DNA from: Melioribacter sp.
GTDB lineage: Bacteria > Bacteroidota > Ignavibacteria > Ignavibacteriales > Melioribacteraceae
Length of the DNA stretch: 64,000 nucleotides
Reading direction: 5' to 3'
Assembly: GCA_012026935.1 (NCBI GenBank)
Contig: VEPI01000036.1
Span: 44,047 to 108,046 of the forward strand
Shown: piece after piece, positions 17,603 through 33,398 of the stretch
Layout of the letters: each line of letters opens with the position of its first letter
Numbering within the stretch: position 1 is the first letter of the stretch
Program-made: the position numbers and the translations under genes
Notes under the pieces: generated by a model
Seen by the model: the letters and a program-made list of their open reading frames with translations, nothing else
Databases searched by the model: none
What the model was told of the DNA's origin: nothing

Positions 17603-17639
17603 AAAAAATTATCCCGCTATAACAGCGGGATAATTTTTT
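17603..17639 (-). terminator. Intrinsic terminator downstream of the TonB receptor (structure symmetric)
   Basis: AAAATTATCCCGCT-ATAAC-AGCGGGATAATTTT flanked by A and T runs. Confidence 0.75.
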
Positions 17640-32709: not shown

Positions 32710-32758
32710 TTGACAAGTGTTCATGTGTTCACTATATTTTAGGTGAACAAAGGAACAC
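32710..32758 (+). promoter_or_regulatory. lexA promoter TTGACA-N17-TATATT overlaid by a large imperfect palindrome (candidate SOS operator)
   Basis: GTGTTCATGTGTTCAC (32717-32732), 10-nt spacer, GTGAACAAAGGAACAC (32743-32758); arms complementary at 14/16 positions; spacer holds the -10 element. Confidence 0.75.
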
Positions 32759-32762
32759 TATT

Positions 32763-33398
32763 ATGAAAAATGAACTTACTGACCGACAGCAAGAAATTCT
32801 TGATTTCATTCAAGAATATTTAGGCACCAAAGGATTTCCCCCAACCTTCCGAGAAATAGCGAAACATTTCAATCTTGCAAGTACATTTGGAGTTAAGCGC
32901 CACATTGATGCACTTGTTAAAAAAGGATTTCTTTCTAATGAAAGTAAAACCAGCAGGACTCTTTCTTTAATAGGCGATGTGCATAATAAACTAAAGCAAA
33001 CTTCAGATAATACAATTGGAATACCAATTGTTGGCCGTATTGCAGCGGGACAACCAATACTTGCCGAAGAAAATATTGAAGGAAATATATTCTTTGATAC
33101 TTCAATGGTGAAAGCAAAAACAGAATGTTTTGGTTTAAAAGTCCGCGGTGATAGTATGATCAATGCCGGAATTTTTGAAGGAGATCTTGTAATTGTTTCT
33201 CCTCAACAAAATGCAACGAACGGTGACATTGTAGTAGCATTACTTCATGATGAAGCAACAATGAAACGATTCATTATAAATGAAAATATAGTTTACTTGA
33301 TGCCTGAAAATGAAAAATATAAACCAATAGAAGTTAATCAACGCGAAGATTTTTCCATCATTGGTAAAGTAATCGGCGTTTTTAGAACTTATAACTGA
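32763..33398 (+). CDS. lexA: LexA repressor
   Basis: N-terminal wHTH (ELTDRQQEILDFIQEYLGTKGFPPTFREIAKHF), S24 catalytic domain (GRIAAGQPILAEENIEG, LKVRGDSMINAGIFEGDLVIV, DIVVALLHDEATMKRF). Confidence 0.95.
   Translation: MKNELTDRQQEILDFIQEYLGTKGFPPTFREIAKHFNLASTFGVKRHIDALVKKGFLSNESKTSRTLSLIGDVHNKLKQTSDNTIGIPIVGRIAAGQPILAEENIEGNIFFDTSMVKAKTECFGLKVRGDSMINAGIFEGDLVIVSPQQNATNGDIVVALLHDEATMKRFIINENIVYLMPENEKYKPIEVNQREDFSIIGKVIGVFRTYN

What the first reader, a model, noticed from the sequence alone, without database searches (positions are those of the whole stretch)
32710..32758. Large 42-bp imperfect palindrome wrapped around the lexA -10 box, built from GTTC/GAAC repeats
Left arm GTGTTCATGTGTTCAC and right arm GTGAACAAAGGAACAC match as an inverted repeat at 14 of 16 positions, and each arm is itself a direct repeat (GTTC-N4-GTTC; GAAC-N4-GAAC). 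The spacer TATATTTTAG contains the -10 of a TTGACA-N17-TATATT promoter. LexA is classically autoregulated, so this is a strong candidate operator, but this spacing differs from the E. coli CTGT-N8-ACAG, the Gram-positive GAAC-N4-GTTC and the alphaproteobacterial GTTC-N7-GTTC boxes.
Basis: partly seen in the sequence, partly recalled or inferred. Interest (0 to 1): 0.65.

Follow-up and report, generated by a model that had tools for sequence, protein, structure and literature searches.

The report
Double LexA operator at lexA promoter
In an uncultured Ignavibacteriales bacterium, the gene for the DNA-damage repressor LexA carries two copies of a lineage-specific binding site in its own promoter, so LexA almost certainly switches itself off; the kind of system is well known, but this version of the site appears not to have been described.

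Summary
In detail: two 16-bp arms match at 14/16 around a TTGACA-N17-TATATT promoter just upstream of lexA. A bare palindrome like this is not rare in 64 kb (about 2.5 expected by simulation); conservation is what makes it real. In 58 of 59 distinct lexA promoters of Ignavibacteriales relatives the structure resolves into two separate 18-bp palindromes, AGTGnnC-N4-GnnCACT. Box 1 fills the -35/-10 spacer and box 2 covers the start site and ribosome-binding region. They lie exactly 26 bp apart in 52 of 58. The GTTC-N4-GTTC direct repeats are incidental and not conserved. A matrix built only from lexA boxes finds one box upstream of a DnaE2-type polymerase half-gene in 27 of 30 relatives, and of several dinB genes, but none at recA (0/29). 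So the unit is a single 18-bp LexA box, a flank-extended variant of the Gram-positive GAAC-N4-GTTC type. This genome has lost the dnaE2 cassette, and lexA is the only promoter in it with a strong box. Relatives also carry a second LexA whose own promoter has a different box (ACCATAC-N4-GTATGGT): duplication with motif divergence. Binding itself was not tested.

The parts
32710..32715 (+). -35 hexamer TTGACA of the lexA promoter
   Evidence: 11/12 sigma-70 match; TTGAC conserved in relatives
32716..32733 (.). LexA box 1, AGTGTTCATGTGTTCACT; fills the whole -35/-10 spacer and touches the first base of the -10
   Evidence: (matrix score 22.5)
32733..32738 (+). -10 hexamer TATATT
   Evidence: TATATT conserved
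32742..32759 (.). LexA box 2, GGTGAACAAAGGAACACT; 26 bp centre to centre from box 1; would cover the predicted start site (about 32745, inferred) and the AAGGA ribosome-binding region
   Evidence: (matrix score 19.7)
32763..33398 (+). lexA, 211 aa: winged HTH plus S24 peptidase; A95-G96 scissile bond, S131/K168 catalytic pair by alignment to E. coli LexA
   Evidence: PF01726, PF00717; alignment to solved LexA structures

Best explanation
The stretch is a double autoregulatory LexA operator. Each of the two 18-bp palindromes AGTGnnC-N4-GnnCACT binds one LexA dimer. Box 1 lies exactly in the -35/-10 spacer and box 2 over the start site and ribosome-binding region. Bound LexA would therefore exclude RNA polymerase and keep lexA low. 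After DNA damage, RecA-stimulated self-cleavage of LexA at A95-G96 would release the promoter. Shown here: the sequence, its conservation, its recurrence at dnaE2/dinB in relatives, and the intact cleavage and catalytic residues. Inferred: binding, repression and induction.
For: 58 of 59 distinct lexA promoters carry both boxes, 26 bp apart in 52. The box columns are far more conserved than flanking DNA. A matrix trained only on lexA boxes finds a box 39 to 181 bp upstream of the start of homology in 27 of 30 dnaE2 C-half genes, against 0 of 29 recA genes, and at dinB in several relatives. Across 57 genomes the exact pattern occurs 96 times against 23 for the reversed control (tallied from the per-genome counts). 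The complete TTGAC-box-CTAT arrangement is in 32 of 43 genomes of the order and 0 of 202 outside the order in the class. LexA keeps the DNA-binding domain and the S24 catalytic residues. A distant LexA (42% identity, L182) with a similar recognition helix (GVRRHIDAL against GVKRHIDAL) also has an AGTG-type site (score 22.3) in its promoter, while several Firmicutes/Actinobacteria LexAs with other helices show GAAC-N4-GTTC.
Against: No binding or expression data. In this genome no strong box is found at any promoter other than lexA; recA, uvrA and the Y-family polymerase lack it. Part of the conservation of box 2 (AAAGGAG) could reflect ribosome binding, and part of box 1 the promoter itself.
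Confidence: 0.93

Rival explanations
1. One single large operator: the 42-bp inverted repeat is bound as a unit by a higher-order LexA assembly, with GTTC-N4-GTTC direct repeats as the recognition element.
For: The two inner half-sites (GTTCACT ... AGTGAAC) are the best conserved, and the 26-bp spacing is fixed in 52 of 58, so some interaction between dimers is possible.
Against: Outer GTTC elements are not conserved. Single 18-bp boxes occur alone at dnaE2 and dinB. The spacing may be fixed simply by the need to flank the -10. By inference, 26 bp is about 2.5 helical turns, which puts the dimers on opposite faces and does not favour a simple joint complex.
Confidence: 0.06
2. The boxes are operators for another regulator (for example a different repressor of lexA), not for LexA itself.
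For: No direct binding evidence. Second LexA paralogues exist in many relatives.
Against: The boxes persist in the window's genus, where neither a LexA2 paralogue nor its motif was found. LexA2 promoters carry a different box. The targets (lexA, dnaE2, dinB) are canonical LexA targets.
Confidence: 0.03
3. Chance palindrome over a promoter.
For: About 2.5 such inverted-repeat register hits are expected per 64 kb.
Against: Conserved in 58 promoters and re-found by a trained matrix at independent genes.
Confidence: 0.01

Closest known systems
Gram-positive LexA (Cheo/DinR) box, GAAC-N4-GTTC, B. subtilis CGAAC-N4-GTTCG (PMC3323433, PMC3091678)
   Same: Palindromic, C-N4-G dyad spacing; ideal single copies in relatives (AGTGAACAAATGTTCACT) contain GAAC-N4-GTTC; used at lexA.
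   Different: The invariant part is the outer GTG/CAC with A/T flank; the AA/TT of GAAC is variable. Most Firmicutes lexA promoters score below zero with the Ignavibacteriales matrix (highest 7.0), while several carry GAAC-N4-GTTC.
Fibrobacter succinogenes LexA box TGCNC-N4-GTGCA (from memory, not checked in a paper)
   Same: Copies of the form AGTGCAC-N4-GTGCACT would satisfy both consensus sequences.
   Different: The two variable positions after GTG are mostly not CA here; extra A/T flank. A relationship was not tested.
Cyanobacterial LexA box AGTACWNWTGTACT (PMC3091678)
   Same: Same general palindrome with AGT...ACT ends.
   Different: Shorter (14 bp), AGTAC rather than AGTGnnC.
Non-canonical Bacteroidetes LexA with CTAA-N5-TTAG or GGA-N5-TCC motifs (PMC8565304)
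   Same: SOS repressor, S24 peptidase, motif divergence after duplication.
   Different: Those proteins have a CI-like N-terminal domain; this one is a canonical winged-HTH LexA (PF01726) with an N4-spaced box.
Alphaproteobacterial GTTC-N7-GTTC direct repeat (PMC8565304)
   Same: Contains GTTC words.
   Different: Direct repeat with 11-bp register; here the unit is palindromic and GTTC repeats are incidental.

Membership tests
Canonical LexA repressor | Winged-HTH LexA DNA-binding domain plus S24 peptidase domain | tested here: met
   PF01726 E 1.9e-20; PF00717 E 1.8e-37
Canonical LexA repressor | Ala-Gly scissile bond and Ser-Lys dyad | tested here: met
   A95-G96, S131, K168 aligned to E. 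coli LexA in solved structures
LexA autoregulatory operator | Conserved box overlapping the lexA promoter across relatives | tested here: met
   58 promoters; promoter arrangement in 32/43 genomes of the order
LexA autoregulatory operator | Same box at other SOS genes | tested here: met
   Relatives only: dnaE2 C-half 27/30, several dinB. In this genome not found at recA, uvrA or the umuC-like gene
LexA autoregulatory operator | Direct LexA binding and damage-induced derepression | not testable with these tools
   needs EMSA, footprint and expression data
Gram-positive GAAC-N4-GTTC box | Both half-sites GAAC/GTTC at N4 | tested here: not met
   No GAAC-N4-GTTC in this lexA promoter; each box has one such half only. 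The C-N4-G spacing is shared
Alphaproteobacterial GTTC-N7-GTTC box | Direct repeat with N7 | tested here: not met
   Spacing is N4 and the repeats are not conserved
E. coli CTGT-N8-ACAG box | CTGT-N8-ACAG | tested here: not met
   absent from the promoter sequence

The most novel reading that the evidence does not exclude
Ignavibacteriales evolved two LexA repressors with separate operators (LexA1: AGTGnnC-N4-GnnCACT; LexA2: ACCATAC-N4-GTATGGT) that divide one error-prone polymerase (DnaE2, encoded as two half-genes) and DinB between them. In the lineage of this genome, loss of LexA2 and of the cassette has left a LexA whose only promoter target is itself.
Probability: 0.3. Interest if true: 0.65.

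Novelty: new variant of a known kind. Interest (0 to 1): 0.45.

Why it matters
It adds a LexA-box variant for an order of canonical-LexA bacteria related to the Bacteroidetes with their non-canonical LexA. It also exposes a natural series (one LexA; two LexAs with different boxes; cassette kept or lost) in which the proposed route of LexA motif change by duplication can be followed genome by genome. The small apparent regulon (lexA plus error-prone polymerases, without recA or uvrA) suggests an SOS response centred on mutagenesis.

Tried and rejected
A strict pattern in the own genome gave extra hits, inside coding frames and at about chance number. recA: inside a pgsA-pgpA-cinA-thpR-recA-recX gene run with no box in 12 kb. 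The Y-family polymerase of this genome (G000:C159) and its closest relatives: no box. uvrA: best score 2.2 at the own UvrA locus; highest in any of 30 loci 12.5, one weak site near uvrA of G037. A direct-repeat reading was rejected because the outer GTTC is not conserved. Literature: searches for Ignavibacterium/Chlorobi with LexA found no report of this box, but the library is incomplete and the Verrucomicrobia LexA paper is not held. A first version of the conservation script failed and was repeated.

Full report
Observation. The sequence is as described: TTGACA 32710-32715, AGTGTTCATGTGTTCACT 32716-32733, TATATT 32733-32738, GGTGAACAAAGGAACACT 32742-32759, ATG of lexA at 32763. The arms pair at 14 of 16. 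The promoter scores 11/12. The downstream gene is a full canonical LexA with the Ala-Gly cleavage bond and Ser/Lys pair aligned with E. coli LexA. By simulation, inverted repeats of this quality are not rare in 64 kb of this composition (mean 2.5 register hits), so conservation has to decide.

Organism. Named relatives of the LexA are Ignavibacteriales, mostly Melioribacteraceae MAGs. The window's genome has 3.18 Mb in 176 contigs.

Conservation and anatomy. lexA promoters were read from 30 related genomes and further named contigs. After removing duplicates, 58 of 59 show two palindromes, AGTGnnC-N4-GnnCACT, 26 bp apart in 52, 25 in three, 28 in two and 29 in one. The outermost GTG and CACT columns are nearly invariant, while the two positions after GTG vary. 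Mean information is 1.3 and 1.5 bits per column in the boxes against 0.23 upstream. The outer half of each box is degenerate (GTTC, GCTC, GTAC, GCAC and GAAC all occur), while the inner halves GTTCACT and AGTGAAC are near consensus. Box 1 fills the -35/-10 spacer; box 2 covers the inferred start and the AAGGA ribosome-binding region, so some of its conservation may be due to translation.

Independent targets. A pattern search of 57 genomes found 96 exact boxes against 23 for the reversed control (my sum of the per-genome counts). Most non-lexA sites that were read lie about 10-120 bp upstream of a gene for the C-terminal half (fingers, HHH, OB domains) of a DnaE2-like polymerase, or of dinB; a few lie inside other genes. 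A matrix trained only on lexA boxes scores 12 or more upstream of 27 of 30 such dnaE2 half-genes and 0 of 29 recA genes. One of the three exceptions (L232, genome G043) has the LexA2 box instead. Seven dinB genes, most of them divergent from dnaE2, also have the box; dinB genes that sit in a lexA2 gene run do not. Because these are single 18-bp copies, the binding unit is 18 bp, not 42 bp.

Own genome. Sites other than the lexA pair that score 10 or more fall inside coding frames, the exception being one weak site (score 10.4) overlapping a gene start. recA, uvrA and the one Y-family polymerase gene have none. The dnaE2 cassette is absent (only the main DnaE) and LexA2 is absent. So the only strong promoter target seen is lexA itself. 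Weak sites with two or more mismatches were not exhaustively placed.

Second LexA. About half of the relatives have a second LexA, near 40% identical, often in a gene run with a DUF72-like gene, dinB and the DnaE2 N-terminal half (gene names partly from my reading of the sequences). Of 23 LexA2 loci read, 19 have an exact CCATAC-N4-GTATGG just upstream, two have it with one or more mismatches and two have it further away. The motif is absent from all 12 genomes of the window's genus. Both boxes share the C-N4-G core spacing.

Recognition helix. LexA1 proteins read STFGVKRHIDAL; a distant LexA (L182, 42% identity) with STQGVRRHIDAL also has an AGTG-type box (score 22.3). Firmicutes and Actinobacteria LexAs with SS/STVHGHL-type helices score low with this matrix, and several carry GAAC-N4-GTTC; LexA2 (NRATVQQHL) goes with the ACCATAC box. 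This fits helix and box changing together, but is correlation only.

Range. The arrangement TTGAC-box-CTAT is present in 32 of 43 genomes of the order and in 0 of 202 genomes of other families in the class.

Comparison. Reported LexA motifs include GAAC-N4-GTTC, CTGT-N8-ACAG, GTTC-N7-GTTC, TTAC-N3-GTAA and GGTT-N10-AACC (PMC3323433, PMC8565304), and the cyanobacterial AGTACWNWTGTACT (PMC3091678). The present box is closest to the Gram-positive one in spacing but fails its defining half-sites at this promoter. I therefore call it a new variant of a known kind. I found no report of it, within an incomplete library.

Noticed in passing
L281, L282, L283, L284, L287, L323-L340 (relatives): A second LexA (about 40% identical) whose own promoter carries a different palindrome, ACCATAC-N4-GTATGGT; usually the only exact copy in the genome. 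Absent from the window's genus.
   Followed up: partly
L278-L280, L283-L286 (relatives): The DnaE2-type error-prone polymerase is encoded as two half-genes of about 550 aa (N-terminal PHP half and C-terminal fingers/HHH/OB half), often divergent or far apart, with the N half next to dinB.
   Followed up: partly
L232 (genome G043): The dnaE2 C-half promoter carries the LexA2 box in place of the LexA1 box, a possible case of regulator exchange.
   Followed up: partly
L204 (own genome, G000:C89): recA lies in a gene run with pgsA, pgpA, cinA, thpR and recX and has no LexA box, so recA is apparently outside LexA control.
   Followed up: partly
window 17603-17639: Perfect 16-bp inverted repeat with a 5-bp spacer followed by T residues; looks like an ordinary intrinsic terminator.
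   Followed up: no
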